Of a DNA stretch of 41,501 nt, positions 1 to 41,501 are shown in pieces. The DNA lies in assembly GCF_000186865.1 (NCBI RefSeq), contig NW_008705601.1:95787-137287 (forward strand), in the 5' to 3' direction. A model generated the notes under the pieces. The model searched no databases, was not told where the DNA came from, and saw only the letters and a list, made by a program, of their open reading frames with translations. The position numbers and the translations under genes are program-made. Origin of the DNA: Aureococcus anophagefferens. Its lineage: Eukaryota > Sar > Pelagophyceae > Pelagomonadales > Pelagomonadaceae. Position 1 is the stretch's first letter. Every line of letters starts with the position of its first letter.

Positions 1-2
1 CC

Positions 3-3000
3 ACGAAAGTTGGATTAAAGTACATAGTGACCCTTGGCCAAGCGACCAACTCTCGTGTGCCTGTCTTTCGTTGGGAGAACATGCAAATTGCCTCGTACGC
101 ATCGGCGACATACGGTTCCATCGGTGTATTTCTGTCGGATGCAGCTGCTTTTGGAATCTCAAAGCTCGAATCGCAGAGCATGAGCCCTCAGATGGGCGTT
201 GTTCTCGAAAGAACTACCTCGACACTTATCGCCTAGAGCTCCCGCGCCTCGCTCTCGAATACTCCCATCGGTTTCTTCCTCGGCGCCGGGGGCTCTTTCT
301 CGAGCGAGGGCACCGGCACCGGTAAAAAAGAATCGCTCTCGGTGTACTCGGGAACCTCTGGAGCTCTCTCCGTGGCGTCTGGTCGGGTGTCCTTCACGCT
401 CGGTCTCACGGGTCCGTGCCTGACCTTGGACACAGCGTGCTCATCGTCGCTCGTTGCCGTGCATTTGGGAGCGTCAGCTCTCAAGCTCGCCGAGTGTCCC
501 GAAGCAGCGGCGACGGGCGTTGGGATGCTGACGGCGACGGTGTCGATGGCTTTCTCGGCGGCGGGCATGCTCTCCGCTTTTGGACGCTGCCACACATTCG
601 ATCGTCGCGGAGACGGGTACTGCCGTGGGGAGGGCTGCGGCGCTTTTCGGTTGTCCTCTGGATGTTTGGAAATGTCAGTTTTGGGCACAGCTGTGCAGCA
701 AGACGGTCCGAGCGCGAGCCTGACGGCACCAAATGGGTCATCGCAAAGACGACTCATCGATGCTGTACAGGCAGACACGGTTTTAAAATTTCGAGTTCTA
801 GAGGCGCATGGCACTGGCACAGTTCTCGGCGATTCTATTGAGGTGACCGAAGTTCTGGTTTCTGAAACCCACGTGGCGTCGTTGATAGGTTGGTGCTGTA
901 GTGAACGCTATATCTCTCAACTCGCACATTTGAGTTCCTGTGGCAGAAACTACCTGCTTGAAATCAAACATGGGGCATCTGGAGCCGGCCGCTTCGGCCT
1001 CGTCCCTTGCGTCTGTGATTCTTGTTTTCTTCCTGACATCCGTGTTAGCTGTTAATGCATAGTTGCGTCGGTCGTTGGTCCACGAGCGCCTAGGAGTGAT
1101 CTCCATGTCATGTCTCTAGGCTAAATGCGCACCTATCATGATTTTCCTCATTTCACATGCCCGCCGAAACGGGAATGGTGTCGAAGTACACGAGCAAAGA
1201 CACCACTCGTGCTTTCCCAGCTTGAACCAATTCATTTGGCTTTAGCGGGACCATCGCTCATGCAGGATTTCTTCAAGGAGGCCCCCACAAGAGGTGTCCA
1301 GCAGATCACTGCTAACGATAGATAACCTCAGTGTTTTGAAATCAAATCATTGATAAGCAGGATCAAAACCGATCCCAATCACCAGAATCCACATAAGAAA
1401 ATGTAATGAATACACTCGAGAACCTGTTCGGCTCAGAACTCAAGATTGACACACCATTTGTGAACCTTGAGGCTGTGTCTTAAAGCCTCGATGAGGACTA
1501 ATCGTTCCTGGCCATGGGGCTCAGGTCAAGCATGGCCTCAGTACTGAGCTCCAAGATAAGCAACGCAGTGAGCGCTGTAGTGGAACCAACACAAATATTT
1601 GAGACTCCAACGATTCGAACATTCCGAAAACATCTCTCGCAGCTGAGCAGTATATCTGAAGAGATACTGCATCCGATTTTATCGGAGACCATATCGCGTC
1701 AAATTGACGCTGGAAGACGTGGCAGGGAAAAATGGAGCGGCCTCTCTCGCAAACTACGCGCTTCGCTCGGTGTCAACATCGAGGACACAAAATTGATGAC
1801 CATGACCAACGCGAGAGAGCTCCTTGGATTCCTTGACTAACGTGCAGAATCTGCGGCTGAAATTACACCTGAGCCATCCTACAGCTTGTGGGACAAAATG
1901 TTGTCTTTCCACAGTAAAACGTCGGGAGATAGATATGTACTTAGTCAAAAAAATACATGAACAATTCTGTTGGTGTTTGCCATGCCTCATTCCGGGCTTC
2001 AGGCTTTGATGTCGGGGCTCGACACACACACGTACTTGGCGGTAGGCAGTGAGCTTTGCCTCTTACCATTCACATCAATGATGGAATGATCTAATTTTTT
2101 AACCCTGTAAAGACACGAAACTGATGGACTTTAAGTAAATGTACGCAGCCTGCGAAATCAGGCATAGAATCATATTTCTATTGAGCCAGAAACTCCAATT
2201 CCCAGAATCTTTGAGGCCATGCAAGATTGGTCTGCCCCATGAATATTGGTCGACGCCACAGCGGCATATTCCGCGTGTGAACTGCCAGTTTTCCGGCAAG
2301 TTAAGGACATGTTTAGAAACAGCATATGCATGGCACTCCTACGCAACCCCACTTCCTGTCTCGGTCAACGACACCAGTTGTACGGATGAGAAAGTCTGGT
2401 TACGTATGAGAAGTAGTGGATAAAATTCACGCGATTGTGCGCAGACTAAGCATACACATAGCTCCGATACGAAGAATTGCCAGGCGCATTCGAGATCATA
2501 TACCAGAGTCTTGCAATTCCCTTCCAACCTGCAAATATGGATGCGGATATTGATATTGAAATGCCCAAGCGCACACAAATCGAGCTTCAGATTGACACAC
2601 ACGTCCTTGCATGGGAGCTGGGTTACCAGTAATCGTCGTAAGCAACTGTCGATTACCTATTCATCGACGTCGAGGCCGAGCAAGGCGTTGTAATTTACCT
2701 TCAGCATGGAGTTCCTTCGCAAGAGGCCGTGGTTTTACTCCATGGTGGTCTAGGAACACCTGTTGCTACCCAACTGCAGCCGCATTTGCCTTAGGACTGG
2801 CCAATGATGACTTTGCAGGCACCTGAATTGCTGAATCAGGAACAGATTGAAATCTCCAATTTTCGGGATCGTGCTCTGTTATACAATGATTGCATTAGCA
2901 GACAATGAGTTCAGAGAAGTGTTCACTTGGTTGGATACTCCCACACGGGTCCGTTAGCCTATGAAATGTCGATCAATTTCGTGGCAGCTGGGCTACGCTG

Positions 3001-4693: not shown

Positions 4694-4827
4694 GGTGCTA
4701 AAGATAGGTCTTCCAGGTGGTTTTGCAGAGCATGCCGATATCAAGTTAAGTGATGAAGTGATGCTCTTGTTTCAAAGTTCACTCCGCGGGGTAACTTTGA
4801 ATCATAGTCAACACCACACTTTTGAGG

Positions 4828-5265
4828 TTAGGTTTTGAATCTGTGCTGATAGGGGCGTCCTACGCGCCTCGGGGGGGCGTTAACCACGGGCGGGGTCGCA
4901 TCGCTTCCCGGCGCGAATTGCGCGAAAAAAGCATCACGCAACGCTGCGGCGTCTGGTGAGTAGCCGTCGCCAACTTGAATAGGTGGAAGACTATAATCTG
5001 TCGAAGCAGATGGGGCGTCGAAGCAGGCTGGGCGTCGAGGCGGGTGGGGTTCAGTTGGCGATCGCCTGCGTTCAGAGGTAAGGTCTGTCCAGGATCCGAT
5101 GGCACTTGGAGATGCTGATAGCCTCCGGAGACTGATGATCCAGCCTGCAGTTTCCGCCCAGAGATAGAGAGTTTTATATCTCCCTAGTGGCTCGCTGGTA
5201 CAGAGCCACCAAATATCCCTTCCCTTCCTAATACTTTCCAACCCTGTTATAGCTGCTTCTCGCAC
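4828..5265 (-). CDS. Hypothetical minus-strand ORF, 145 codons
   Basis: Open from ATG to stop with a Pro/Arg-rich middle and a DAAALRDAFFAQF helix-like segment. No domain recognised. It is the longest unshadowed minus-strand ORF in the spacer. It could be chance, a small gene or a mobile-element remnant. Confidence 0.25.
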   Translation of the reverse strand: MREAAITGLESIRKGRDIWWLCTSEPLGRYKTLYLWAETAGWIISLRRLSASPSAIGSWTDLTSERRRSPTEPHPPRRPACFDAPSASTDYSLPPIQVGDGYSPDAAALRDAFFAQFAPGSDATPPVVNAPPRRVGRPYQHRFKT

Positions 5266-5311
5266 TGTGATAGACGGAGAGTCTTCCTGGACCTAGTGAG
5301 GCAGAGTCGGA

Positions 5312-5348
5312 CGGCAGGGCAGCCCCACTAGGCTGCCTCCCCGTGCCG
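5312..5348. repeat. Inverted repeat / hairpin
   Basis: CGGCA...TGCCG outer arms enclose GGCAGCC-CCACTA-GGCTGCC, a 7-bp perfect stem with 6-nt loop. It lies between the spacer ORF and the four-TM gene. It could be a terminator-like structure or a mobile-element end; the sequence does not decide. Confidence 0.45.
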
Positions 5349-7479: not shown

Positions 7480-8285
7480 TCTAGAAGCCCGCTCTACTGC
7501 TATGGCTGTGTGGTCATCCAGTGGCATAGGAATAAAATATTTACGAGGCGACTGCATTTGAAAACACCAGCTGTGGCCGAAACGACGATGGTTCTTCAAT
7601 GCTCATGGATTGAACATTTTGGGCGCTTTGGGCAGGACAGGGCACTGTGGCGTTGTACGCCATCGACATGCCACTCTTGCCAGCTTGGTAGAATTCAGAT
7701 CCGACTGCACTTACAGAAAAGCTCGCGCGATCATTCTCTGTAGAGCTACCCACGATCGTGTCTTCGCTGAATCATCCCGCAGGTTGCCAAGCAGCTGTTA
7801 CTTTGTACAGTCTGCATAAGCGCACTGAACATCGTCTTGTCAATAGACTTAAACTTTCGCTCGATTTGTAAGGATGTGAGTATAAGAGGCGCATAAATTT
7901 CAACGAGCAGATATTCCATCTTCCGTACACGCAGGGCTCGCGGAATTTTATCGCATGCTTTCGAAGTCTAATCTGGAACCGTAACGGCAATACAATTCCC
8001 GCGTTGTACGAAAGCTTCCTACAAAGTGGCATGTGCGTCCAAGAGGCAGGTTGGACCATTTATGGCTGGGAATCTCGCATCGTCAATCCCATCTAGGTGA
8101 AACCATAAATTTCGCTCGCATCTTTTGTGTCGCGTGGCAGCTAGCGCCCTATGCTCAGCTAAAAGCTCGCAGGGATTCATGTCAGCTTAATCACAATCTT
8201 TCAAGGTTCTCCTGCTCGCATATGCACCAATGCAAGGCGGCGCTAAAAAGTGAGTCTCGTCGATCGGGCGGCAAATTCCGCGTTG
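7480..8285. other. Unassigned stretch upstream of KS-C
   Basis: No recognisable domain. An open stretch in frame 1 (7474-7743) continues from the ACP remnant. The N-terminal half of KS-C should lie here but I could not align it. The phase changes from 1 to 0, by an intron or an indel. Confidence 0.35.
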
Positions 8286-8694
8286 ATCGCACTTGGTCGC
8301 ATTTCTTACGTGCTCGGCCTCGCCTGCCCCTGTTTCCCCGTCAGTTCCGCGTGCTCGGCTTCTCCTGTTGGCGCACATCTCACAGCAGTAGGATTATAAC
8401 GAGCTGAGTGCGAGCAAGCGTGCATGAGCGCGGCAAACACCCTCGAGCAGGGCATGTATGCTACCTTTAGCGTCCCTGGTATGCAGTTAAATCATGGTTG
8501 TTGCCACTGGTTTCATGACTGCGCCGATGGATATTGCCGCAGAGAAGGCGCCGGGTCTCTTGGTAGGTCCAGCGAGGATGCTCGTCAAAGGCCATTAGTC
8601 TTCGGCGTCCTTGTCCGTGACTGGTCGCTCGACACATACTTAAAATTAAAACTCGGCGAACGTTTTTCATTTGGCTTTGGTGGAAGCCACTAAC
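8286..8694 (+). pseudogene. KS-C, collapsed ketosynthase remnant
   Basis: Starts with GRISYVLGL and keeps SSACSAS (Cys present, but the DTAC/DSAC Asp is Ser), [10 protein letters not shown] and [10 protein letters not shown]. It then skips the whole HGTGT-GHLE part and resumes at SFGFGGSH before TAA. It is closest to KS-D. Two conserved Arg columns are Cys here (GRCH becomes GCCH, the FDSR Arg is TGC), as C-to-T decay would give. TAA 8397 and CGA 8400 face CAG and TGA in KS-D. This is a genuinely inactive copy and a useful internal control for what decay looks like in this locus. Confidence 0.75.
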
Positions 8695-11600
8695 CAGTTA
8701 ATGACGCCAGCGTCAATTAATTACCAGAAACGCACACAAGAAGGTTCCTCTGATGAGCAATTGGAGATCTATTCGACGGGGACTTGACGAGAGAGGTGTC
8801 CAATGCGTGTCCACTGGGTGCCCACATGGCACCATACTTTAATTGAAACAATCAATATCGAATTTTGCCCACCACTGCTTGGGCATTGGTGGCAGTATTA
8901 CTGGGAGGTTGTGATGATATGATGCGAAATGGACAACGGGTTGACGCTAGCGAGCTTGGTATTAGACTCGCTGCGGCTTTCGATGTCCGGCTGCCGAAAG
9001 CGGTTGCGCATCCCGATGTCGGGTTCATGGCATTGGGCGCCGATTCGTTGGATCTGCGGGGCCTTGCCGAGGATATCAGCACCGCATGTTCTGTGTGAGC
9101 GAGTTCTCTGACTCTACTCGAGTGTGGGACGTTCAGAGCGCTCGAAGATCACCTTCCCGTGGGATGAGGGCATGACGCTAGCGAGCTTGGTATTAGACTC
9201 GCTGCGGCTTTCGATGTCCGGCTGCCGAAAGCAGTTGCGCATCCCGATGTCGGGTTCATGGCATTGGGCGCCGATTCGTTGGATCTGCGGGGCCTTGCCG
9301 AGGATATCAGCACCGCATGTTCTGTGTGAGCGAGTTCTCTGACTCTACTCGAGTGTGGGACGTTCAGAGCGCTCGAAGATCGCCTTTCCGTGGGATCAGG
9401 GCCTGACATTATTGGACTCACTGCAGCTTTTAAGAGTCAAGTGATATCGGCTGGCAGGACTTCGACTGGATATTTGTAGTTTCGACTCCCTGGGACCGCT
9501 TCTAACCCTGGTGTTTGAGAGTTCTTACTCTTGAATGTGACATCAGGACAAAACATACCACCAGCTTGATGAGAATCTTCCCTAATTTCACATGCATCGG
9601 CCGCCTATGGAAACTTCACGCCAATGTTCATCTAACATGATAATTGGAATATGTCTAAATAAGAATTAAATTATGTGAATCCTGTTCAATTGCAACTTCT
9701 TGAGATCTGTCATACTGCGTTTGTCAGTCGCGGCAAGCGCCCCTCTACATTGACAAACACGCTCACAGGTGTTTATGTTGGTCTATTTACCTCTTTACTC
9801 GGTGGTTCCTTCTGATGATCCAATAGAGGTGCAAAACCAAACATCTACAATGGAACGGCGAATTCTGTCTCAGTAGCTTCTGGTCGCATTTCTTACCTGC
9901 TCGGCCTCATCGGTCCGTGTTTCCCCGTCGATTCTGCGTGCTCGGCTTCTCTTGTTGCGGCGCATCTCGCATCGGTAGGATTGCAGTGAGCGGAGTGCAA
10001 ACAAGCGTGTGTTGCCGCGGGAGGCATCCTCGAAGCAGGCATGTATGTTGCATTCAGCGTTGCTGGTATGTTGTCGAATCACGGGCGCTGCCACTCATTT
10101 GATAGCCGCGCCGACGGATATTGTCGTGCCGAAGGCTGCGTTGGATTTCTATGTGAGTCTAGTAATGATGAAACGGCACAATAGATTCGCTCGACTGCCG
10201 TTTGATAAGATGGTCCAAGCGCAAGTCTCACCGCCCCAAACGGAGCCTCTCAGCGTTCATTGCTTTGAGCCGCGGATTTTGATGCAGCTATCAATGGTAG
10301 CATCGCACTCGAAGCCCATGGAACTGGCACTGTGCTTGGCGACCCCATTGAAGTCGGGGCCGCTGTCAATGTGCTCTGCAGTGTGCAGGTCCACATTTGA
10401 ACCATTAAAAGCAATGTCGGGCATCTGGAGGCGACCTCTGCGGTTGCGGGATTGGTGTCGTTGATCGCGCTTGCCTTCGCACAACTTCCGCTGTGTTCCT
10501 TGCATTTTCTCAATTTGCATGTGAGATCTCTAGAGCTCTGCCTGTTTTATTTTGCGACGGAAGTGGCTTCTAGCGCTCTTAACTAACCTACCGCAAGCTG
10601 ATTGAGTTCGTTCGGGTACAGTGGAACAATAGCCCACGGAGCATTTTCCATTGGTGATGCGAGTTGCCTGTCGGTCTTCTAAGCCAGATCACAAATTTCA
10701 TCATTTCGTGTTCAAAAGTGAGTTGCTGATGTTTCTGTCGGACTAGTGTGATTGGCTTTCGCAGAATTGGAAAGCATCGGCGCTGTATCCTGTGAGTTAC
10801 GATGTCGTGGAAGTCAGTCCCTGGGAACTTTCGCATCATTGATGTAAAGGCCTTCTTCCAGAGAGCATACACTTTCTGAAGTGATGTAAAGGCCTTCTTC
10901 CAGAGAGCATACACTTTCCAAAACTATGGAAACAGTCCATGCCGCGCACCCTGATACACAGTGCCACACAAGAATAACCAGCATTCCATAAACCACGCTG
11001 TGTTCCAAAAGGTTAACATGTTTACTTCTTGCTGCTGGGTGCATGTACGACTCCTGTCTGTATCAAGTCTCACGTGAGGGCTTGTTATCAGGTAGCCTAT
11101 GGTTCCGATGTGCCATTCAGCCCCGAGCATCCCAACGCCGGTGAGCTACCGCGACCTTGCAGTCCCCGCTTCGGCTTCTGTTTCTCCACGGAATGGATAC
11201 GTACGCAGAATTTCAAGTCGCCTCCCTGAATCACCAGGGCTGGAATTGAAGTCCAATAATCGAATGGGTGACACTAAGCGCTCCAAATCGAGGCGCCGAT
11301 TTTTCGTTGGGAGCCGGTGGCATGTTCTTGCGCGAGCAATTCGGGTACGAGCCGCAGAACTCGCGTTCTTGGCGCCTGATTACGCAGTATTCCTTGACCA
11401 GCGCCAGCCAAGCTGACATGTTTTCTCGCATTCGCAAGGCATCGGACTCTGATGCTGACATCTATGGGCTTGGAGAAGACTGGACAGCATCGGTCGAGCA
11501 GATAATGCGAGCTGTAAAGGAACAGGCCCTCGTCTGCGGTCTTGCGGGTATCAGTGAAGGCGCCACAGTTGCATCTGCTCTCCTCGTGTAGCTTGCCTCT

Positions 11601-29207: not shown

Positions 29208-32200
29208 ATGATCGCAAATACTAACTCGCATGACAACACTGCATGACGACTACTTCACTGGTACGAACCTCAGTAACAGTCTTGGCAATCATAGAGCGCG
29301 GATCATGAGTGGAATGGCTGGTCGATAATTAGTTCAAGCTGTTTGCGGGTTGGTCAATGGGTTCCCTTCGAAACAGCGTTGAGTACAGTTGGTAGTCCAT
29401 GTCTTTTGTGGTTTTCTGGTGCGGCGACAAACTCTGCATTCAACGAAACTGATTGACATGGCCTTTCTGGCTACGAAAATGCCCTCGCAGTGCTTGATCA
29501 CGACGAACTTTTGAATGCCTGATGCGCAACCTACTGAGGTTTACTCACGTCATCTGTCTTGGCTTCTTTAGCCCTTAAAAATCTTGGATTGGCTGCTGGT
29601 GACTGAATTTTTTTAAGCTTGCCCACGGGCCTTGAGGCAATCTGCTGGATTGTATCTGCAAAACGTCTCGGAATCATATACACGTGCATACCTCAAAATA
29701 TACCCGTACAATCACTTGCTGATCGCATACATGATACTGGTGCCAAGGTATTGATTGCGAATGATGTCTCGGGATAGTGATTGGTGAACAGTGCAATGTC
29801 CGACTTTCATAGTGTACCAGAATTATTGAGGATACTGGGGACGGAAGATATTGCCAGTAGCTAGATTGCTGCTATGTGACGAGAGATACAGGACTCTATG
29901 ACGATTTCAACAACTGCACTCAACGTTTTATTCAAACTCCTCGGTACTCCAAGTAGTGATGTTTCCGCTCGTATCTTCGCCAAACTAGAAGCCACACGTC
30001 CGCACCTGCAGGTGTTTGTCGACGATGTCCTGAAATTTGAGAACAGTCCGACCAAAACAAAGCACTCTCCCATGTTGAACGGTGATCATCTGCACGGGCC
30101 ACATGTATCATTCGCTAACTCTGTTATGGACGAAGAACCTTGACCTGTGGAGGCGAATTTCCCTCTGTTCATTACCTATACGAGTGGAAGCACAGGAAGA
30201 CCAAAGGGCATCGTCCACGCGCATGGATATCTGGCGGGTGTGATGATGACGATGCAATGCAGCTTCGAACCTATTCCAGGGACCGACATCATTTTTGTGC
30301 TTGCTTCACTTGAGTGGATCACTGGTCAGTCGTACATGGTGGCAGGAAGCCTTTCAAGTCGTGTCACAAGTCTGATTACCAGGTCAAACCCGGTCTCGCC
30401 GTATGTGGCACATTTTGCTGCGATGATCGATCAATATGGCGCATCCATTCTGAAAGGAGGTGTTTCATATCTTAAACTTTTGATGTCAAAGGAGCTAGGA
30501 GCTACGGAATTACGTAAATTCGACAAGTCGACCCTCAAGGTGGCAAGTTTCTGCGCCGAACCTTGTTCTCCTGCAGTTTAGCTCTTTGCGATGCGTCACA
30601 TCACCCCACATTATATAAATTCTTACTGGGGAACTGAGCACGGCGGAATGGTCTTGAGCTGGCCCTACCAGGATGCTGGGTAGAACTTGGCACCAGATAC
30701 TCACATGTGCGAGTATCCATGGATTTAGTTTTCATCCTGGGCTCCTGCTGACCACTCACAAAGATGAAGCTCATTCTGATCTGCAAATACAAATGACGTG
30801 GGTGAAGGGGTGATCCTAGCACCGTGGCCATACATGGCACGAACAACCTGGGGAGATCCAAGAACTGTCGGGCATTGAGATTGGCGAGGTGATGCTAAGC
30901 AATTTAAGTCTACGTATTTTGACCGATTCAACGTACCCGTATTTTTCCAGGGCGATACCGCAGTCTCACATGGCTCTGGCCACTTCTCAGTGCATGGTCG
31001 CTCAGATGACGTACTGAATATCAATGGGCACTGAATCAGCACAGCGCAAATTGAGGCCAGCGTGTTACGTGACAAGCTCAGACCCAACTCTCCAGTTGCC
31101 AATTGTATTGTGGTCGGAATTTCCGATAGGTTAACAGGTCAGAGCCCCTGGGCATTCATCACTCTGATGGAAAAATCTGTGTTGTCCATTCAAGACAGGT
31201 AGCGACTTGCAACCTACTGCGTTACTGACATTGGCGAACACGCTGTACCGTCGCAATTTGTTGTCATCGGCGATATTCCTGAAACCGCGACAGGAAAGTA
31301 TATGCGCCGAGCAATACAAAAGACCGTTCAAGGCGAGTAAATTGGTGACTTGAGCGCTCTTCGCAACCCAGGTTCTATTGATCAACTTTAAACGTCCTTA
31401 AAATAACAAGTATCGAAAGGCATTCTCCGTATGGTCGAGCAAGACTGGCTCTCGCTACGAGTGACTCCAGTAGAGCCGAGACCGATCCCATGAGCTCATC
31501 CTGCGGTTTTTAGAATCACCAAAGAGCTCTTCTTTGCCATTCAAGGTACGGAGGTTGCTAGAGATGTACCACTCGTGGATGCTGGCCTGACTTCGCTGAG
31601 TGCTCTGAGGCTAGGATGATCGCTGCAGGATTAGCTTTCGGTCAATATTCCCGCAACACTTGTTTTTGACTATCCTTCTCTAGATTCTATTGTTTCTCAC
31701 ATCGCTTCGACCAAATTGGATGTTTGAGAAATCACCACAAACTAGCAAAATAAGCGCGAGGCTTTGCACACTGGGCTCGTATTGATCAGTGATTAATGTA
31801 TATGCTTGCCCTTTCATGCTTTGAATGCAAGCTCACTCCGCAACATGATTGCTCGTGGATATGATACACAACGAAAAGTTCCTTTGCTGCGATGGAATTT
31901 AGAATCACTAGCTCATATGGTATCAACAATATATGGCAGCTTCAGAGTAATCCAGATTGGATTTTGCGGCTTGTCGAATATTGAAGCAAGCCACGTCGAT
32001 CCTCAATAATTGATGCTGCTCGAATCAGCTTTTGAAGTTCTTTGTGATGTGAAGAATGTGGGTGTGTACGTGGGCATGGGGGCCTTGACAGGCTAATTCA
32101 TGCCGCGTTCGAAAGCTCGTGAGACAACGATATACTCCGGGACTTCGATTGTCCTCTCCGTCGCATCTGGTCGTATTTCTTTCATGAACGGACTTGTGGG

Positions 32201-35200
32201 TCCTTGTCTTGCTCTTGACACAGCCTGTTGTTCCACCCTTGTCACCAAACATCTCGCGAGATCAGGCCTGGAATGAGCTGAGTGTACTCAGTCCATCTCA
32301 ATTGGTGTTGGATGCCTTGAACAGGCGGGATTCTGTGCATTTTCAGCCGCTGGAATGCTATCATCGCATGGACGTTGTTACACATTTGATGTTTGAGCGG
32401 ACGGCTACTGTCGTGCAGAAGGTGTAGTTTCTTGGTTTCTCGAATATACTGGGAACATACTTATCAATGGTTCCGCAGTATAGCAAGACGGACAAAGCGC
32501 AAGCCTAACGGCCCCCAACGGAGCATCGCAAAAGTGATTACTTGAAACTCTACAAGACGGCATCACTGTTGTGTAAGCGCTCGAAGCTCACGGCACAGGC
32601 ACGGCGCTTGGGGATCCTATCGAGGTACGGCATTCTTGATAGATAGTGTGCGCTCGGATTTTTTCTATAATAGATGGGTGCTGTGACAGGAGCTTTGTGT
32701 ATGAATTTAAAGTTGGTACATCTCGCATCCCTGAAGGCAAATGTCGGCCACCTTGAGGCATCTGCGGCTGCTGGGGGAATGGCTTCTCTTGTTCTTATGC
32801 CTCTCGGCATTTGTGCAGTTGCCAAAAATATACAATTATATCGGTCTGGGCAATGTCCTGGGTGTGATGATAGAGATTTGAACTATAGGCTGAACTTCCA
32901 CCTAGTTGCCTTAGTGTCATTGTCATTTCAAATGCCAACTGAGATCTCGACATAAATTGAAGCTTAGTCGTCGTCAGGTCGGCTGAGTTCATTTGGTTTC
33001 AGTGGGACCATCGCTCATGCGGCGTTTGTCCCTCAAGCTTGTTCGGAATTAGCCTAAAAGGGGACCAAATCAACTTCTGTCCACCGCGTTCAGACAGTGA
33101 GTTTGAGCTCGAGCAACCACTTAATGTTTGTCGCACACACTTCATGGATGGCACATTCAGTGAGTTGTTGTGATTTGCGACGCAATTGCGTGGTGAACGT
33201 CACGTCATAGCCTGGGCTATTGCAGGGGCAATTGCAAACAAAAAAAATTTGGGCGGGGGCTGATGCGATGCTGAGCAATGATACATTCGTTCGGAGTCAA
33301 GTTGCCCGGTCACCTCGGATATATCAGATTGCGCAACGTCACGACGAGGATTTGTTTTTCAAGGATCCATGTGCTGCCATGCACAGAGGGGCCCACTGTC
33401 ATTTCTCCCTTCCTCATTATAATCTATACCTCGTACGACGAGAATCGAGCACCTCTGGGTGATGATCGCGACTGACACTTTCAGGCACTCGGGTATTTTC
33501 TATTCGTGTATGATTGTCCCCGTTCATTCCAAAGACTTCGCACTCAGCACTGAGGTTGTTGTTCTTGCACGGCATGGACACATACGCTGAATTTTAGGTG
33601 GGGTCTATGATTCACCAGTGATGGATGCAGCAATAGATGATAGAGTGGGTCACAATGAGCGCTCCGAATCAGGGAGGTGACTTTTCGTTGGGAGCCGGTG
33701 GGAAGTTCTTGCGTGAACAGTTCGGGTATGAGCCACTAAAGTCACGGTCATGGCGCCTCATAACACAATACTCCCTGACAAGCGCAAGCTAAGCCGAGAT
33801 GTTTTGTCGCATTCGCAGAGCGACGGAGGAGAATGATGGCAGATATGGGCTCAGGGATGACTGGAAACGAGCATTCTAGCAAACAATACAGTTGGAGAGG
33901 GACTAGGCGCCCATCCACGGTTTTGCGGGTATTAGCGAAGGTGCAACAGTTGCATCCATTCTACTCGCACGGCATGCCCAAGACGTCGCAAGCAGCTTCC
34001 GTGGGCGTTTGCTGGTTAGCGTCTCCGCACTGACGTCGCCTGCTCACAGTCAAATGTACGAGGAGGGACAAACAAACATGCAATGTCTCCATTTAGTTGG
34101 GGATAGTGACACGGCGGATATCTAGCACATGGTTGGACTGACAGCGGGGCTCTTTGGATCTGACTCTGGTGTCTACGTCTTCCGGGGGGGACATAAGCTT
34201 CCAAATCTGAGCCACCGGCTTGTTCGAGTGTTAGGTTCAGCTCAGTTGACTGTCCTTGGCAAATCCATCTAGCTTCCATGTCGGCCCATGCAATCAACAA
34301 GCTACAATCTCCAAGTCACGACAGAGTATAGTCATCTACGGACAAGAGCGGACAAGTTCATTAGTTCCATGGTGATTTCCCGTTCCCGAGTTGTGGATGC
34401 AATCTGGAACGAGGAACAAATTTTGCATGTGACAGATGGATTTGTACGCGCGGCTACTTTTATTTGAACTATGCTAGAAGTCATCACGTGCCACGCTCTC
34501 GTGCATTCAAATTGCCATGACAAGCCAGATAATTCAACAGTGCGACAAGCAGGCTGCAGTCTGAATTCTGGCTTTGAAGTAGATATTGCAGCCCCCATTC
34601 TTGTGGCACTTGGCCCGTATCGGCACGGGGACGTTGATTAGTTTGCGGATTGGTACGTCAGTATCAGAGGAGAGGTCCATTATTCAAAGTCCCACGCGTG
34701 GGACGCTAGTGCTCTGGCCTTCAACGAGAGGGATGCACTGATTTGACTGGAAAAGTGCGCATCGACCCTGAAGCATCTCAGAGTAACTGGTGTTTGAAAC
34801 TTTCTTGCCTCAATTCGTTGAAAAGACACGCTACACGCAACGCGGGATGACGTCCCATTTATGGCCATTTATGACGTAAATAGGAGGGTAAGAGAAGGGG
34901 GGCAAAACTACGGGGATGAAGTCAATTTCGCTGAATCAAGGATCCTCACCTCGAGCCTTCACGCCATCAAGGAGCGCAGCAATGTTGTGGCTAGCCCTGA
35001 GAGGTCTGATTCACAACTAAGCCAAATGTAGATGGAGATGGCCAGTTTCCTTGTCTTTCGTCCAGCGCTCATCCCAAACGAAAGGTTTTCGTGCTGTTGG
35101 AGCATGAACCGCGTGATGGTAATAAAACACAGCTCATGTATCCGGGTACAGGATTACATGATCTAGTATTGTACTGGTGTGGTTTTTGACTTTTGTCGCG

Positions 35201-38200
35201 TTGCAATCGCAGGGCCGGTTTCCCCCTTTGCAATTTCCGTCAAAGCTCCAATGTTTGCTATAAGCAAGGAAATGGCATCTTGGAACACAGTGACGCTGGG
35301 TGATATATTCATGGTGCAGCGGAGCCTCGATGCAGCGGGGAGCTTTTCCAATGCAGGCCACGTCATCAATGAAGAAGATCTTGCTCTGCGAATTGTGGTC
35401 TTTATTGCAAAAATACTTGCAAGAAACCACGCTACTATTGCCATGGCTGGAAGCTCTGCATAGTCCTGGGTCACGGCGGCTGTCCCCCTTGCAGCTAGAC
35501 CAGTACTGGGCATAGGATGTCAAATTGACATCGTCGCTAGCTAGGTTACACTTCACATTTGCTTGACCAGTCTGACTTGGATGCGCGCTCTGACTGAAAT
35601 CTTAGGAGTCATATCGAATAGTGGAGTTGCAGTAATGATGCATCTTGCGCGTCACGAGGGGGGTCATGTCGTCTGCCAACCACTCTGAAGCGGACCACTT
35701 GTCACCACAACATTCGTCACCACAACTGTTTCTTCTGATTTATCAAGCTTCCATACAATGATTACTCTTCGTAATCTTTCGACAATCATGGTCTCCGGGA
35801 CGAAAGTGCTGTACTCTTGCGCAACAACGTTGCTCGCTGATAGCCTGGAAACATCTCAAGTGAGGCTCATTGACAAGTTAAAACCAGACGAGCGGGGGAA
35901 ACTGGACACGCGACCTTTCGAGTCGAATACAAAACTTCCACCTTCCACGTGTGTAAGCCACGCCTTGAGCAGAGCAGCCCGTGTAATGCTAAAAATCATG
36001 TAACGGGAACCGTCGAGGAGCACCAAAGCAGCTATGATAGCATGGAATGACCCTGGAATAGCCTTGCTTGAGCTCAATGACCCCCATACCTTCAATGCTA
36101 TGACGGAAACTCTCTTGCAGAACCTAACAGTCCAGCTATCGGCAACGTTTGCTTCCTAGTCCCTCCGTACTCTAGTCCTACAAGCTGCTGGTCCTCATTT
36201 CTGCACCGGGGGTCACTACGCAAACAGCATGTCAACATGTCCACCTTGGTGGATCAAGACACAATTCACATGCAGCAGTGGTTATCTTTTGGATCGGATT
36301 TGAAGTGCACCGCTTGTGTCGATCTCTGTGCTTCAAGGATTATCAATTGGTGGCGGATTTCTCCTGGGCCTAGCAACTGACCATCGCATAGCTACGTTAT
36401 CTGCAACATTTCGGCTGGGCGTGGCCCGCCACGGCCTCAGTCCCGTTTTGATGGCGACTAAAATCCTACCCTCTCTGGTCGGGCCCTGACTGTCCATGGT
36501 GATGTTTGCAGAAGATTTGCAAATAAATGCTCCCCAGGCTGTAATGCGAGGCATTGCCGGCAGCATGCTGCTTAATGTACGGATGGCTAGGGAATTTGCG
36601 GCTTGTGCAGGTGCTTGAGCAGCGGCGGGCTTGGCGATGATGGTGGGTGTAATTGATAGAGACCTCTACCATTTTGTTTAAGAGACGATGCTCGGTGAGG
36701 AAACCAAGATCGGTGCAAGCATGGCGTCGACATCCGTGATTCTTAGGAGTCACAATACTACAACTGATGCGTCACCACCTCAAGGTCCCTTTTTGGGCGC
36801 CGAATGAAGATTTCATCAAGCGCGTAACAAATGAGTAACATCCTTTGTCCGTGTCCTAATTGCGCCGAGATTCGGCACTAGCCTCTGACAAGAGGATGTC
36901 CGGCCGAAAAGAGCTGGAATCGATTCTCTCGCCGCACCCGACATTGTGGATTCCATGGGTGGGAGGTTTGATATACACATGAGAGCAACATCACTGTATG
37001 GTCGTCCTCTATAAAATCACATGGCCTCTGACGATACGAACCCGTGTGCAAGAAGTCCAGTTGATCTTCATGTTGGGGACCCCTAGTAAGTAGGGACTAG
37101 ATCAGAATGAATTGCTCTTGAGCCTGAAATTGACTCAGCTTAATTACAACAATAAATCTTGTCTATAGTGACTCGCAGCCTGGGGTTGGATATCGGTGCT
37201 GACGCGCCTCTCATGGAGGCGGGTGTGGACTCGCTCGCTGCACTGGAACTCTCAAATTGACTTCAGTCAGAGCTTTGTCTAGACATCTCTGCAATGCTCA
37301 TCTTTGATCATCCAAGCGTATCATCTGTTGCTTCCTACCTTGTATCCAATTTTGCTCGCATCGAACTTTCATTGACATCTCGTTCGTTGTTTCATGCGAC
37401 GTCGATCAAGAAAGAAAGCGGAGACACACCAAGTCCACCGATTCTTGTCTCCCAAATTGTTCGTGGTGTTGTTATTGTCTCATACAATCGACCACAGGAA
37501 AAAAACCCATTTGATGCCGCATTGTCAAGCGCACTCGTGTCTGTCCTTGACAAACTTAATACTGACCTACAATTGTCTGCAGCCATCATCACGGGACGTG
37601 GAGGCTACTTCTGTACGGCAGCCAAGTTCGACGAGCTGCTTCGTCCTATTCATCCTGTGTGGCTACATACGTCTCTCGTGGCAGGCATCGTCATGTTGTT
37701 TGACTCGTTCATCACGTTCAGTAAACCCATTGTCGCAGCCATAAACGGTCCAGCATTTGGTGGTGGTGTGACCCAGGCCACGCTGTGCGACATGGTACTT
37801 TCCCTGCGTCACGCTAAATACTCACTGACTTTTTCTCACTGGAAGGTGTCACCAGAGGGTTGTGCTTCCGTACACCTGGCTCGTGTCATTGGCATTAGCG
37901 AGGCAGGGAAAATGCTGGCGGGTGCATGGATCCCTAGCTCAGCTGTTGCAAAGAGCATTGGTCTGGTATCCGAAGTTGTGGCCGATCTTTCGACACTTCT
38001 TGGTACGACTGACAAATGAATCTGAGAGCTCATCTCCGATTTCTACCCTCGCTCCTACAGGAACCTCGCGGGAGGATGTGAGATATGCCAGGAATACAGC
38101 ACCACAAGCGCCTAGGAAGGGATATCCCTCGCAGATGCTTGCCTATCTCCCCCCTTTCTAGTGATCTAGTCTCAACTTCCCACATCCTCGATATATTTTG

Positions 38201-41200
38201 CGAAGCTTTGCCTGTTTATGATAACGATGTCGCCGCTTTCTTTGGAGTAGTTGGGCTCACACAACGGAAACAAATCATAGATGGAGTCGGTGATAGAAAA
38301 GTTGTTGATGCGAGCTTTCATGCCTCACGTGGATATTCCCCCAGGACTGTAGCAAACGTCAGGTGATTGCCTTCATGTTTTCTTTTCCGATCTTGAGTTT
38401 AAGTTACCTCCGAGTATTAGCAATGCAAGCCAGCTGCGAAATTTTATTGCAAATCGTCTGAATGCGACTTCACCACCCTCATGATGGGCTGTGAAGAGCT
38501 CACACGCTATTTCAGTAACTTATGGAAACTTTGTATTGAGGCGACTTTGTCTCGAACTCACTACGTGGGGGATGTCACACACGGAGATTTCAGTAGTTGA
38601 TCCGTAGCAGCTTATCCTTTTGGAAACGAGTTACGTTGTACTAGCAAATGCCAGCTCAAGTAGCCACCGGCTTAGCAACACCCATGTGGGTGTCTACCTA
38701 GGAATTTCCGGGGCGCTGGTGTCATCAGGGGTTGCTGGTGATTCAGGGGCTGCTGGCGATTCTCATGATGCGAGAAATGTCTATGTTGGCACATCGGCTT
38801 CCATGGCCGTCGCTTCTGGCCGTATTTCGTACACACTTGGGCTAACTGGCCCATGTTTTCCTGTGGATACCGCATGCTCAGCTTCTCTTGTTGCAATTCA
38901 TGTTGCTTCTACTGCATTGAAGCTGGTAGAATGTTTGTGTGCGTGCGTATGCGGTGAAGGACTGTTGGAACAGGCAGTGTTTGTTGCATTTAGCACCGCA
39001 GGAATGCTCTCTCCCTTGGGTCGATGTCACACGTTTGATTGCCGCGCTGATGGATACTGTCGCGGCGAGGGCAGCGGTGCGGGCTTGCTGTCTTCCGGGA
39101 ATCTTCGAAGCGTAATCGTGCTTGGCACTGTGGTGCAGTAAGATGGCCTGAGTGCGAGCCTGACTGCACCAAATGGTTCATCACAAAAACGACTTGTTGC
39201 CTCCATCAGAGATATTGGTGCCGCTGCTCTGGCATTGGAAGCGCATGGCACTGGCACGACACTTGGAGATCCAATCGAAGTACTTTCATCATCATCGCGA
39301 CAGACCATTGCAAGCACCGTTTGGATAGGTTGGCGCTGTCATGGGGGCCTTGTGCATATCCTCTTGCCCGTCGAGGGTCCAGATACATTGTGCCTCTTTG
39401 AAGTCAAATATGGGCCACTTGGAGCCAGCGGCAGCTGCCATTGGCCTCATATCTCTTGTGTTCCTGCCTCTAAGCATGTGCGCCATTGCAGTGAATGCGC
39501 AGATGAATCAGCTGCTCCCCCCCTAACAAGAGAGTTTCCAAGCTTGGGAATGTCAGGTTGAACGCACACCTAGCATCAATCCTCTTGCCATCATTTGAGA
39601 TGCCCGTCGAGGTATTGTGTGAATGTTTTGCTCAGTGCTCATCGGTGGGTCGGCTCAGTTCGTTTGGCTTCAGTGGGACTATCACGCACGGCGCATTTAC
39701 TTCCTTGGCCTACAAGAAGCAAAACGACAAAGAAAGAGATAAAACGACATCTCACTTCCGCAATTCTTGAGACTTGCCCTCCGAGAGGTACAAAGCCGTC
39801 CATTGGACCGATGGGATCTTGATTAGCTCGGGTTCTTTGTCCGAGACTGTGAGTGCCACTCTCGCTAGTCATGCTATTTCAGGTAGCATCATCCTGCCCG
39901 CTGTCAGCTATACTGAGCTTGCTCTTGAAACACTTGATCATGGAACGTGTCTGTTTGGTCTGTTCATCGTACGGCCATGCCCGCTGCCATCGCACAGATC
40001 TGATCAGTGCTTGCTGTAGTGCACAGGACGAACGTCAGAAACATTCGCAATTGAGAGTATGGCGACGAAGAACGATGTCAGTTTCATTGTCCATGCTATT
40101 GGACATTGTAGAGGTGCCAATCGGATGACGACCACAGATGGCTCAATGCGAGCTGTCCAGAACTCGAGTTTTAATTTATTTGGAATCCTGCAGACTGAAT
40201 ACTAATAATTTCGCAGCCCGGCGGGCTAAAAATGATATGGAATCTTCTCTGAAAATGCCCTACAAGCTGCTGTTTGCGTCGCGAGTTCCTGGCAGTAGAG
40301 GAGTAGCAAAAGTTTGCAGCGGTGGAAAGAGTCGGACGTAACCAAGCAATAATCTTCGAGCAATATCTCCCTGTCAAAGGCAGCCTGGCTGCACGCATGC
40401 GCGTTTATTTGACAAGCACTGCCGGATTAGCTTGCCAAATACGTCCTGCCAATATCTGGGCTGCTAACTCAACCACCTGCTTTGTACATCCGCCATGGCA
40501 GTGTGTGTGCGGCTGGCTCCTAGCAGCCACGGTCTGTATGAAGGTGCTCTTCTTTGCTGTAGTATGGTCTTGAATGTCATTCTGGTCAGGAGCAAATCTA
40601 TGATCGGCGATTTTAAAGTGCTGTCATGTGAGCGCCTCAAGAGATCCCTCAGAAAAGATTGCCCTTAATTCCACTAGAAGTGAAGTTGCATCTACACCTC
40701 GCCGCATTATAGCGGCCGCGTACCTCCCAGCTGAACGACACGCCGTTTGCATCGGCACACCATGCGTTGTGTAAGCGGCACAGTCTCCTTGGACGTGCTT
40801 GGGCAACGAAGCGCACCGTGCTTGCGTTTCGTGCTTTCATCAAGAGCGCCGCCATAGCAAGTACAATGGCACCAATCTATCAATCATGTAGCTCAAGGGG
40901 ACTATTCCAGAGGTCTCGGATGCAACCCACAGGCTGGCGGGCGCGAGAGATACCTCAAGTGTTGCCACAAGTAGTCAGGTGCATTTGATTAGTAATGGGA
41001 ACTGAACTTTCCGTGGACGCCCCACTGATGATGGCTGCTGGAATCGACTCCCTTGGTGCTACCGAAATGCAAGAGAAGCTAAGCGAAAGATTTAGTCTCG
41101 TGCTCCCGACCACACTACTCTTTGACTATCCATCGATTAAGGGAATTGCATCTTTTTTGGTTGAGAGGAGTACTGGTTGGGGCGGAGCTCTGGCAACAGA

Positions 41201-41501
41201 GACGGCTCATTCAGCCAAAGAAGAAACAATCATCAACGTGAAAGGGCATCGCCCATCGCCGGAAATGTGGTCGAACAGGATTCTCTCGAAATGGTGAGTA
41301 GCAGCAAGTACGATAAGATTTATCTATTTGCATATCAAACTGGGTGGCAAGGTGACAAGGTTTGTCTCCATGCGCGAGCTTGTGATCCGGACCTTGGTCA
41401 CGGCTTCCGATGTTCCCATTCTTTGATGGGCTGCTACTCGAAACAATGCAGAGAACTATGGATCGTTTCTTCTAAGTCAACTTCAAGTGGATTTTTAGTC
41501 A
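29208..41501 (+). CDS. PKS gene C, 5' part with ligase loading module, runs off the window
   Basis: First in-frame ATG after the gene B stop is 29208 (42 nt downstream, frame 0). Order: acyl-CoA ligase, ACP, KS-J, FSH hydrolase, unidentified segment, ECH1, ACP, ECH2, linker, KS-K, DH, ACP, KS-L. Phase 0 to 32624, 1 to 39279, 2 to 39510, then 0 to the end, changing only at KS introns. A ligase-ACP start just after an ST-TE end supports two separate genes rather than one. In-frame stops throughout, as in gene B. Confidence 0.65.
29240..31340 (+). CDS. Acetyl-CoA-synthetase-like acyl ligase (loading domain)
   Basis: Adenylate-forming enzyme of the ACS type rather than the NRPS type. NSAFNETD-(TGA)-H where ACS has D-R-H, AAGD-(TGA 29604)[14 protein letters not shown] where the family has [41 protein letters not shown] (phosphate loop, 30180), [29 protein letters not shown]-(TGA 31032)-ISTAQIE where ACS has GHR, and [14 protein letters not shown] with the catalytic Lys. 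Frame 0. It would activate a short carboxylic acid and load it on the next ACP as starter. Confidence 0.85.
31500..31730 (+). CDS. Loading ACP of gene C
   Basis: [18 protein letters not shown](TGA 31617)-SLQD-(TAG 31632)[20 protein letters not shown]. Thr replaces Asp before the pantetheine Ser. The two stops fall at Arg/Gln-type positions of helix II-III. Frame 0. Confidence 0.8.
31850..33055 (+). CDS. KS-J ketosynthase domain (three exons)
   Basis: KVPLLRW, YGSF, DPQ-(TAA 32007)[53 protein letters not shown]-(TGA 32394)-[11 protein letters not shown]-(TAG 32481)[17 protein letters not shown](TGA 32535)-[16 protein letters not shown], intron, KANVGHLE, intron, [19 protein letters not shown]. 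The His of RCH is Tyr here, the only such change among complete copies. The catalytic triad is kept. Confidence 0.9.
32625..32673 (+). other. Intron 1 of KS-J (49 nt)
   Basis: GTACGGCAT...TATAATAG with a T-rich tract before the acceptor, phase 0 after GDPIE. Confidence 0.85.
32844..32888 (+). other. Intron 2 of KS-J (45 nt)
   Basis: GTCTGGGCA...AACTATAG, phase 2 (CG|G), restoring IQLYRLNFHL. It has no internal stop and a length divisible by 3, so retention would go unnoticed by ORF finders. Confidence 0.75.
33056..33545 (+). other. Linker between KS-J and hydrolase
   Basis: Frame 1 is open for 80 codons (33220-33462, [21 protein letters not shown]). Not recognised. Confidence 0.4.
33553..34245 (+). 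CDS. FSH1/LovG-type serine hydrolase domain, copy 2
   Basis: [15 protein letters not shown](TAG 33595), [27 protein letters not shown]-(TAA 33790)-[20 protein letters not shown] (GxSxG nucleophile), [23 protein letters not shown]-(TAG 34123)-[13 protein letters not shown]. Frame 1. The three TAA/TAG codons face CAA, CAA and CAG in copy 1, while an Arg here faces TGA in copy 1. This is the clearest pairwise evidence that stops replace Gln and Arg. Confidence 0.78.
34250..36030 (+). other. Unidentified segment between FSH hydrolase and ECH, copy 2
   Basis: Frame 1 connects the flanking domains. It includes an open 94-codon stretch 35179-35463 ([37 protein letters not shown]) and another at 35758-36003. 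Shares blocks with 11.9-13.5 kb. About 590 codons with stops. No family recognised. Confidence 0.45.
36040..36760 (+). CDS. Enoyl-CoA hydratase domain (ECH1-like), gene C
   Basis: [96 protein letters not shown]. Paralogue of 13551-14160, with both oxyanion-hole segments present. Frame 1; TAG and TGA codons occur, including a TAG at a Gln-like site in FAS-x-SLRTLV. Confidence 0.8.
36761..37155 (+). other. Linker before the second ACP of gene C
   Basis: No recognisable domain; the flanks share frame 1. Confidence 0.35.
37165..37365 (+). CDS. ACP between ECH1 and ECH2
   Basis: [21 protein letters not shown](TGA 37258)[30 protein letters not shown] is where ACPs have Arg (NRLQ). Frame 1. Confidence 0.87.
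37420..38019 (+). CDS. Second enoyl-CoA hydratase domain (ECH2-like)
   Basis: Crotonase fold: [112 protein letters not shown]. Completely open, no internal stop from 37294 to TGA 38017. In beta-branching cassettes ECH2 decarboxylates the glutaconyl-type product of ECH1; the ECH1-ACP-ECH2 order fits. Confidence 0.85.
   Translation, partial: GDTPSPPILVSQIVRGVVIVSYNRPQEKNPFDAALSSALVSVLDKLNTDLQLSAAIITGRGGYFCTAAKFDELLRPIHPVWLHTSLVAGIVMLFDSFITFSKPIVAAINGPAFGGGVTQATLCDMVLSLRHAKYSLTFSHWKVSPEGCASVHLARVIGISEAGKMLAGAWIPSSAVAKSIGLVSEVVADLSTLLGTTDK
38020..38480 (+). other. Linker between ECH2 and KS-K
   Basis: A 93-codon open stretch in frame 0 (38085-38366) differs from frame 1 of both flanks. Either it is chance or two unseen introns lie here. 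No domain recognised. Confidence 0.35.
38500..39735 (+). CDS. KS-K ketosynthase domain (three exons)
   Basis: [17 protein letters not shown](TAG 38605)-[65 protein letters not shown]-(TAA 39139)[33 protein letters not shown], intron, KSNMGHLEP, intron with GC donor, [19 protein letters not shown]. Phases 1, 2, 0. One of the cleanest copies (few stops). It has a short Ser/Gly/Val-Ala insertion near 38720-38765. Confidence 0.9.
39280..39328 (+). other. Intron 1 of KS-K (49 nt)
   Basis: GTACTTTCA...TTGGATAG after GDPIE, phase 0. Confidence 0.85.
39511..39556 (+). other. Intron 2 of KS-K (46 nt, GC-AG)
   Basis: GCTGCTCCC...ATGTCAG, phase 2 (CA|G), restoring NAQMNQLNAHL. The donor is GC, unlike GT in its relatives. 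Confidence 0.7.
39780..40620 (+). CDS. Dehydratase (DH) domain
   Basis: Double-hotdog dehydratase. [20 protein letters not shown] carries the HxxxGxxxxP catalytic His motif (39868 on). [12 protein letters not shown]...HAIGH fits the middle hotdog strand. [24 protein letters not shown] fits the second hotdog, where the family has L-(L)-DA-x-x-Q. The expected catalytic Asp is His (CAC at about 40398), so activity is doubtful. Frame 0, several stops in the second half. Confidence 0.7.
40621..40975 (+). other. Linker between DH and ACP
   Basis: Frame 0 is open for 73 codons (40767-40985). No KR signature (no GGxGxxG-like motif) or other domain seen. Confidence 0.4.
40985..41200 (+). CDS. ACP after DH
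   Basis: [29 protein letters not shown] then [18 protein letters not shown]. Intact DSL motif, no internal stop in 40995-41297. Frame 0. Confidence 0.88.
41375..41501 (+). CDS. KS-L, start only
   Basis: ASDVPIL-(TGA 41424)[16 protein letters not shown] aligns with the RVP-x-x-RW...YGS start of the other KSs; TGA again replaces Arg of RW. Frame 0, cut by the window end. Confidence 0.6.

What the first reader, a model, noticed from the sequence alone, without database searches (positions are those of the whole stretch)
1..41501. In-frame stop codons in constrained megasynthase genes: TAA/TAG at Gln sites, TGA at Arg sites
Comparing domains that occur several times in the window, stops are not scattered. 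TGA takes the place of Arg at GRCH (15306, 17409, 22272), FDxR (26239, 32394), SQKR (26392, 32535), SGR (23802, 26017), RW (25711, 41424), GRLSSFG (1223, 10599), FFRI (25798; CGA in KS-E at 14877), C-domain RH (18654), ligase GDR and GHR (29604, 31032) and ACP NRLQ (37258). TAA/TAG take the place of Gln at DPQQ (14916, 23646, 25837, 32007, 38605), NAQL (1060) and VQQDG (32481, 39139). Neutral C-to-T decay should hit His (CAY to TAY) and other Arg codons (CGY to TGY) equally, but the KS catalytic Cys and both His are kept in 27/27 cases and I see no CGY-to-TGY change at these Arg columns in complete KSs. Candidate explanations: UAR read as Gln plus UGA read as Arg (the latter unknown to me in any code), U-to-C mRNA editing (which turns UAA, UAG, UGA into CAA, CAG, CGA), or programmed readthrough. 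A few stops face other residues (TAA versus Ala in ECH, TGA versus Tyr in ST).
Basis: partly seen in the sequence, partly recalled or inferred. Interest (0 to 1): 0.97.

Follow-up and report, generated by a model that had tools for sequence, protein, structure and literature searches.

The report
A second code for algal megagenes
In an alga that is very likely the brown-tide species Aureococcus anophagefferens, a large family of giant polyketide/peptide synthase genes carries hundreds of in-frame stop codons, mostly UGA where arginine belongs and UAA/UAG where glutamine belongs, and yet shows the marks of purifying selection, so these genes are likely read with a different code from the rest of the same nuclear genome.

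Summary
All 26 listed positions are in-frame stops. The window lies in a 49 Mb eukaryotic genome, very likely Aureococcus anophagefferens.

In ketosynthase (KS) pieces from the window and other GC-50% contigs (38 long, plus shorter exon pieces), 35 of 39 stops at conserved columns stand at Arg or Gln. At Arg columns: CGC 69, CGT 40, CGA 31, CGG 31, TGA 28, but TGC/TGT/TGG only 3. TGA-aligned columns of relatives favour Arg 5.8-fold (CGA 7.8); TAR-aligned columns favour Gln 10.3-fold (CAA 10.3). Among the 40 closest of 691 pairs dN/dS is mostly 0.07-0.32, and old paralogs share stops. Database relatives ending inside the KS break off just before Arg/Gln-rich columns in 68 of 87 cases.

So this is not decay: the stops behave as Arg/Gln synonyms. 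General or frame-blind U-to-C editing is not supported. HSP70 and kinase hits hold no TGA; the kinase TAR I read lie in intron-like inserts; eRF1 keeps NIKS.

Best reading: a recoding restricted to one gene class, likely by tRNAs. Mechanism untested. I saw no report of UGA=Arg.

The parts
15..1270 (+). KS 1 (its first columns lie before the window): exon 15-851, then pieces 946-1074 and 1100-1270 in other frames; stops at 1060 (Gln of NAQL) and 1223 (Arg of GRLSSFG)
   Evidence: the window shares 138 aa exactly with A. anophagefferens model AURANDRAFT_33486 (P0195)
8244..8576 (+). partial KS, 2 in-frame stops
9480..10646 (+). KS aligned in one frame, 15 in-frame stops, 5 shared with each of three paralogs (L026, L027, L023); one exceptional TGA at a Trp column (9570)
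13593..14120 (+). enoyl-CoA hydratase (ECH) domain with 2 in-frame stops; end approximate
14679..15863 (+). KS aligned in one frame, 6 in-frame stops, incl. TAG 14916 (DPQQ) and TGA 15306 (GRCH)
16809..18101 (+). KS in three pieces 16809-17666, 17723-17890, 17940-18101; 8 stops in the first, incl. TGA 17409 (GRCH)
18519..19853 (+). NRPS condensation domain (Pfam E 3e-52 with X at stops), TGA 18654 at the Arg of RH
19989..20942 (+). AMP-binding (adenylation) domain
21765..23009 (+). KS in pieces 21765-22439, 22469-22852, 22845-23009; TGA 22272 (GRCH); one exceptional TAG at a Thr column (22472)
23436..24672 (+). KS, 9 stops in 23436-24536, incl. TAA 23646 (DPQQ) and TGA 23802 (SGR)
25621..26903 (+). 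KS in pieces 25621-26484, 26543-26707, 26748-26903; 11 stops in the first piece
29529..31298 (+). AMP-dependent ligase: AMP-binding 29529-30662 with TGA 29604 (GDR); AMP-binding_C match 31089-31298, with TGA 31032 (GHR) just before it
31803..33030 (+). KS in pieces 31803-32627, 32674-33030; TAA 32007, TGA 32394, TAG 32481, TGA 32535
36055..38019 (+). two ECH domains (from 36055, 3 stops; from 37465, no stop in the aligned part)
38398..39701 (+). KS in pieces 38398-39297, 39341-39514, 39552-39701; TAG 38605 (DPQQ), TAA 39139 (VQQDG)

Best explanation
In these nuclear megasynthase genes UGA stands at arginine sites and UAA/UAG stand at glutamine sites as freely exchanged synonyms of CGA and CAA/CAG, and their messages are likely decoded by a recoding restricted to this gene class, predicted to use Arg- and Gln-charged tRNAs that pair with a U in place of C at the first codon position. 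Shown: the codon pattern, its absence from the other genes examined, purifying selection between stop-bearing copies, and the absence of a matching pattern at sense codons. Inferred: that the decoding happens on the ribosome. The three exchanges (CGA/UGA, CAA/UAA, CAG/UAG) are one rule, C or U at codon position 1. That would be met by ordinary tRNA-Arg(UCG) and tRNA-Gln(UUG, CUG) with a G36-U1 wobble, or by dedicated suppressor tRNAs (anticodons UCA, UUA, CUA). Unknown: how termination by eRF1 is kept off these messages while other genes end normally. A regulated state with low eRF1 activity, in which the large synthases are made, is one guess.
For: Conserved Arg columns (228 codons, 6 columns): CGC 69, CGT 40, CGA 31, CGG 31, TGA 28, TGC 2, TGT 1, TGG 0; conserved His 191 codons, TAY 2. 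Residues that relatives carry opposite stops (130 KS domains): TGA Arg 5.8-fold (CGG 6.0, CGA 7.8), TAR Gln 10.3-fold (CAA 10.3, CAG 9.7); 0 of 2000 permutations reach either. TGA/(TGA+CGA) follows the Leu ratio TTR/(TTR+CTR) by GC class: 0.74/0.55, 0.56/0.52, 0.56/0.49, 0.40/0.46. Purifying selection with stops in place: L013 vs L020 dN/dS 0.24 sharing 2 stops; window 9480 vs L027 dN/dS 0.24 sharing 5; L012 vs L017 dN/dS 0.29, where all 4 one-sided stops face CGA, CAG or CAA. Stops are used in frame: out-of-frame triplets at conserved codons are left alone (101), and sense codons show no T-to-C excess. Other data sets: 68 of 87 relatives that end inside the KS end just before one of 17 Arg/Gln-rich columns, expected 6%. 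The rest of the genome: HSP70 18 matches without stops. Kinases 132 matches (125 of 358 candidates scored), no TGA, 7 matches with TAR; in the 3 of these 7 that I read all 7 TAR lie in inserts that look like short introns, and the sequences (GC 45-50%) hold 11 CGA and 30 CAR but no TGA.
Against: The part of eRF1 that I read keeps GTASNIKS and neighbours, so all three stops should terminate in the cytosol; a message with about 2% stops (74 of 3564 aligned KS codons in the window) would need near-complete suppression. No suppressor tRNA was found: 36 tRNAs typed, none with UCA, UUA or CUA, and no other close paralog of tRNA-Arg(ACG) or (UCG); but the tRNA list is partial (63 of 277 candidates scored; no tRNA-Gln in it), so this is weak. 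Four of 39 stops at conserved columns face W, E, T or L. In more diverged pairs many one-sided stops face other codons. TAR is less frequent than the Leu yardstick predicts (0.23-0.36 against 0.46-0.55). High-GC PKS genes of the same family carry few or no stops. No transcript or peptide data.
Confidence: 0.5

Rival explanations
1. Stop-directed U-to-C mRNA editing: genomic TGA, TAA, TAG become CGA, CAA, CAG in the message before translation, by a machinery that acts almost only on in-frame stops.
For: Gives exactly these three exchanges; leaves eRF1 and other genes untouched. Precedent in fern mitochondria: 233 of 530 U-to-C edits turn stops into Arg or Gln codons (passage of PMC10027690).
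Against: In the fern more than half of the U-to-C edits hit other codons; here T at sense codons shows no excess (109 of 5238 opportunities, inside the range of other base changes; stops 67 of 222), TGY/TGG at Arg columns 3, TAY at His columns 2. Frame-blind motif editing would damage 101 conserved codons. No DYW deaminase hit (but nothing rang in its prokaryote controls either, so uninformative).
Confidence: 0.22
2. The genes evolved under a variant code in another organism and reached this genome by transfer or chimeric assembly, where they are now dead.
For: Low GC (about 50%) against 66-80% in intact KS loci; stop-bearing KS hits confined to seven contigs plus two hits on C11; intact NIKS region of eRF1.
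Against: The same sequence is in an independent A. anophagefferens annotation (138 aa exact). C41 also carries high-GC ORFs and copia-like ORFs. Moderately diverged paralogs inside this genome still exchange TGA/CGA and TAR/CAR with dN/dS below 0.3, although those duplications could predate a transfer. The intact C4 PKS shares motifs such as [12 protein letters not shown] with the window.
Confidence: 0.13
3. Neutral pseudogene decay with C-to-T bias.
For: Stops in nearly every low-GC copy (one of 38 long stretches has none); lower GC than intact PKS genes; the two most recent pairs with differences have dN/dS 0.52-0.53, on few changes.
Against: CGY/CGG-to-TGY/TGG at conserved Arg 3 of 120 against TGA 23 of 50; the third-position C/T ratio before GA is like that before GC, GT, GG, so no CGA-specific mutation; catalytic Cys and HGTGT His kept 37 of 37; shared stops in old paralogs under constraint.
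Confidence: 0.04
4. Programmed readthrough at leaky stop contexts, or selenocysteine insertion at UGA.
For: Eukaryotes do insert near-cognate Arg and Gln at stops at low rates (recalled).
Against: No strong context around stops compared with CGA or CAR; many stops per gene; UGA columns favour Arg, with Cys at 0.32-fold.
Confidence: 0.06

Closest known systems
UAR=Gln nuclear codes (ciliates, some green algae and others)
   Same: UAA and UAG stand for Gln, the commonest eukaryotic nuclear change (passage of PMC8629427)
   Different: There the genome's genes use it; here the HSP70 and kinase hits do not, and UGA stands for Arg
All-three-stops codes (Amoebophrya ex Karlodinium; Condylostoma and Blastocrithidia recalled)
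   Same: All three stops occur as sense; in Amoebophrya dynein genes the number of typical stops runs from none to 157 (passages of PMC6394959)
   Different: There UGA is read as Trp; here Arg. A restriction to one biosynthetic class is not in the passages I saw
U-to-C RNA editing in fern and hornwort organelles
   Same: Genomic stops at Arg and Gln sites in working genes, 20 in one short region (passages of PMC10027690; hornworts recalled)
   Different: Organellar; over half of the fern's mitochondrial U-to-C edits are at non-stop codons; here nuclear, spliced genes and stops only
Aureococcus multimodular PKS (Shelest et al. 2015)
   Same: Very likely the same gene family: 56 'free-standing' KS models, many judged most likely parts of type I PKSs that resisted re-annotation (PMC4661987, section 5 and passages)
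   Different: 'Stop codon' and 'pseudogene' do not occur in that text; the recoding would explain the broken models

Membership tests
Alternative nuclear genetic code (genome-wide) | stop codons align with one residue in conserved proteins | tested here: met
   TGA Arg 5.8-fold, TAR Gln 10.3-fold
Alternative nuclear genetic code (genome-wide) | used by the genome's genes in general | tested here: not met
   HSP70 18 of 18 matches stop-free; kinases 132 matches without TGA; 3 low-GC kinases read: 11 CGA, 30 CAR, no TGA, 7 TAR all in intron-like inserts; 4 further kinase matches with TAR not read
Alternative nuclear genetic code (genome-wide) | altered eRF1 or matching tRNAs | tested here: inconclusive
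   NIKS region intact, YxCxxxF part not read; no suppressor among 36 tRNAs of a partial list
U-to-C RNA editing | edited C in transcripts | not testable with these tools
   no RNA reads
U-to-C RNA editing | restorable T also at sense codons | tested here: not met
   no excess
Pseudogene | no purifying selection, changes spread over residue types | tested here: not met
Selenoprotein (UGA=Sec) | UGA at Cys/Sec columns | tested here: not met
   Cys 0.32-fold at TGA columns
Algal multimodular PKS/NRPS | repeated KS and ACP with C/A, ECH domains | tested here: met
   Pfam with X at stops
Algal multimodular PKS/NRPS | no integrated AT domain | tested here: inconclusive
   no AT hit in the one forward frame scanned over 8001-37970; other frames not scanned

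The most novel reading that the evidence does not exclude
One nucleus runs two genetic codes at once: the standard code for ordinary genes, and for a large family of PKS/NRPS megagenes a code without stop codons inside the reading frame, with UAA/UAG = Gln and UGA = Arg, an assignment not known to me in any organism. The stops may act as a lock, so that the synthases are made only in a cell state that reads them.
Probability: 0.4. Interest if true: 0.97.

Novelty: categorically new. Interest (0 to 1): 0.92.

Why it matters
A stop-to-Arg assignment, and a code that applies to one gene class inside a nucleus, would both break current rules on how codes change. Even if the mechanism proves to be editing, it would be massive stop-only U-to-C editing of nuclear messages. 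Practically, it would explain why the polyketide genes of a brown-tide alga resisted re-annotation (PMC4661987), and it would change how its natural products are predicted. Gene finders would be missing such genes in related algae too.

Tried and rejected
Neutral decay, CGA-specific mutation and frame-blind editing: tested and rejected. The idea that high-GC PKS genes lack stops only because T is rare at first positions: Leu TTR is 18% (48 of 264) in six intact PKS frames with 86 CGA and 131 CAR, so stops would be expected; but I picked those frames for being open, so their zero is by construction, and the fair evidence is that the KS hits on C2, C4, C8, C12, C32 and C39 have no internal stop. 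The idea that kinase TARs are sense: not supported in the three genes read, where they lie in inserts, judged by eye against recalled kinase sequences; four more kinase matches with TAR were not read. ECH domains as a second test family: 13 copies and 35 stops, none at conserved columns, but no conserved Arg/Gln column exists there, so it neither supports nor refutes. A coding-potential track of the window did not resolve gene ends, so true termination codons were not found. Relatives in viral contigs: none; in bacterial genomes 12 loci with low identity, not used further. tRNA-Gln search with a recalled sequence: no hit, uninformative. Rfam eukaryotic rRNA search failed twice. RuBisCO large subunit: no match in the assembly.
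Full report
WHERE IT IS. The window is contig C41, bases 95787-137287, of a 49.05 Mb, 86-contig genome. The genes have short, intron-like gaps at repeated places. The host is very likely Aureococcus anophagefferens: model AURANDRAFT_33486 shares 138 residues exactly with the window, and JL720_15278 shares 164 residues exactly with an intact KS gene on contig C4. The genome gave 125 KS matches (125 of 131 candidates scored). Matches with internal stops lie on C34, C37, C41, C45, C52, C55 and C77, plus two on C11; not every match on those contigs has a stop. Matches on C2, C4, C8, C12, C32, C39 and other contigs have none. Stop-bearing stretches have GC near 50%; intact KS loci have 66-80%.

WHAT THE GENES ARE. 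With X at each stop, one forward frame over 8001-37970 gives KS, ACP, ECH, a serine hydrolase (FSH1), a condensation domain and two AMP-binding domains: a PKS/NRPS hybrid. Ten KS domains lie in the window, one of them a short partial. Shelest et al. 2015 (PMC4661987, section 5 and passages) counted 56 free-standing KS models in A. anophagefferens and judged a significant number most likely parts of type I PKSs that could not easily be re-annotated; the words 'stop codon' do not occur in the text.

CHECK OF THE OBSERVATION. All 26 coordinates are in-frame stops at the named motifs. I built a KS profile from eight intact KSs of the same genome and aligned every frame of the window and of 23 other loci to it; two of those loci read all N. 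L005 was dropped as a duplicate stretch from the counts; L024, which repeats L017, was dropped but not. At columns where at least 80% of sense residues agree, 35 of 39 stops are at Arg or Gln; the exceptions are one each at W, E, T and L. At columns with at least 60% Arg or Gln, Arg columns hold 37 TGA and 2 TAG; Gln columns hold 28 TAR and 3 TGA.

WHY NOT DECAY. Arg columns: CGC 69, CGT 40, CGA 31, CGG 31, TGA 28, TGC 2, TGT 1, TGG 0; His columns TAY 2 of 191. The three TGY at the five columns are all in the window. A mutation bias for CGA is not seen: at third positions, where C-to-T is silent, T is as frequent before GA (275 to 259) as before GC, GT or GG. Catalytic Cys and HGTGT His are kept in 37 of 37. 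Of 691 KS pairs the 40 closest were listed; their dN/dS is mostly 0.07-0.32 where it can be computed, and the two most recent pairs with differences give 0.52-0.53 on few changes. Paralogs with near-saturated silent sites share up to five stops.

STOPS AS SYNONYMS. Residue profiles of 130 KS domains (from 120 database relatives and the eight intact host KSs) opposite each codon: TGA is like CGG and CGA, TAA and TAG are like CAA and CAG; TGY is Cys, TAY is Tyr. Many of these relatives are themselves broken models, but the residues they show were predicted from ordinary codons (inference). TGA/(TGA+CGA) runs with the Leu TTR fraction by GC class; TAR is lower than that yardstick.

OTHER DATA SETS. 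Of 225 database proteins (the best 120 of each of two searches that gave 3817 and 267, overlaps merged; one, P0121, is the window's own), 87 end inside the KS before column 287, and 68 of these end directly before one of the 17 Arg/Gln-rich columns (11 before 241, 24 before 242, 18 before 257, 9 before 258, 6 before 259). Members are related, and the second query was itself bounded by stops at Gln sites, so I do not lean on the p-value. Still, the simplest cause is that relatives in other data sets carry stops at the same sites; I saw no DNA of theirs.

IS IT THE WHOLE GENOME? Not as far as tested. HSP70: 18 matches, no stops. Kinases: 132 matches (125 of 358 candidates scored), no TGA, 7 matches with TAR. 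I read three of those seven: all seven TAR lie in short inserts relative to kinases (by eye), which look like introns; over the whole three sequences there are 11 CGA and 30 CAR and no TGA at GC 45-50%. AMP-binding: 15 matches, none with stops (14 of 64 candidates scored). A C11 PKS frame with locus GC 68% holds 3 stops in about 2245 codons, one of them TAG at the Gln of DPQ, so the feature may reach a high-GC contig at low frequency. eRF1 lies on C31, another contig with low-GC genes; the part read keeps GTASNIKS.

MECHANISM. The rule is C or U at codon position 1 of CGA, CAA and CAG, in frame only. Editing of any U is not supported by sense codons: T-to-C would give the relatives' consensus at 109 of 5238 sense opportunities (2.1%, inside the 0.7-2.9% of other changes) but at 67 of 222 stop opportunities; T-to-A does so at 34 of 222, the same TGA sites, since AGA is also Arg. 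Frame-blind stop-triplet editing would hit 101 conserved codons that keep their residue. In-frame stops are recognised as such only on the ribosome, so tRNA decoding is the most economical reading. Ordinary tRNA-Arg(UCG), present with an intron, and tRNA-Gln could read them by a G36-U1 wobble (inference). No strong context favours readthrough. The unsolved part is how eRF1 is kept away. Stop-only editing coupled to translation stays open; the fern precedent is partial (PMC10027690, passages).

PRIOR KNOWLEDGE. Searches for UGA/arginine/stop reassignment, PKS with in-frame stops in algae, pelagophyte stop codons, Aureococcus editing, U-to-C editing, in-frame stops in nuclear genes with readthrough and Aureococcus with in-frame stop or genetic code listed no title or abstract start that reports this. 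Beyond listings I saw passages of six papers (PMC4661987 with section 5, PMC10366177 with outline and abstract, PMC10756674, PMC10027690, PMC8629427, PMC6394959). The library holds only open-licence papers.

LIMITS. No RNA or protein data exist here. The tRNA list is partial. Alignment edges may misplace single stops.

Noticed in passing
window 39297-39341 and equivalent places in many KSs: Short gaps with a frame change (about 40-60 nt) at the same KS place, GDPIE|V, look by eye like GT..AG introns; a second recurrent break near NAQLR|LN has unclear splice ends.
   Followed up: partly
window 3592-7428: A high-GC block (ORFs at 64-72% GC, overlapping on both strands) without a convincing Pfam match interrupts the low-GC synthase DNA.
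   Followed up: partly
L009 4874-6877 and 7504-9999 (C41:1-10000): Two long low-GC ORFs read by eye as copia-type retrotransposon polyproteins, without internal stops.
   Followed up: partly
L017 4231 and L024 6316 (C52 and C55): KS stretches identical over 362 compared codons on two contigs: a recent segmental duplication or unmerged haplotype.
   Followed up: no
L071, L072, L073 (C22, C31): Low-GC kinase genes hold short in-frame inserts, probably introns of a length divisible by three, that look like in-frame stops in six-frame searches.
   Followed up: partly
L030 1520-1605: ARAGORN calls a tRNA-Arg(GCG) inside an intact PKS reading frame, probably a false positive of high GC.
   Followed up: no
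L075 (C31) and L074 (C4): eRF1 lies on a contig with low-GC genes and a Pelota-like gene on a high-GC contig: the genome seems split into two GC classes, reminiscent of outlier chromosomes of picoalgae (recalled).
   Followed up: no
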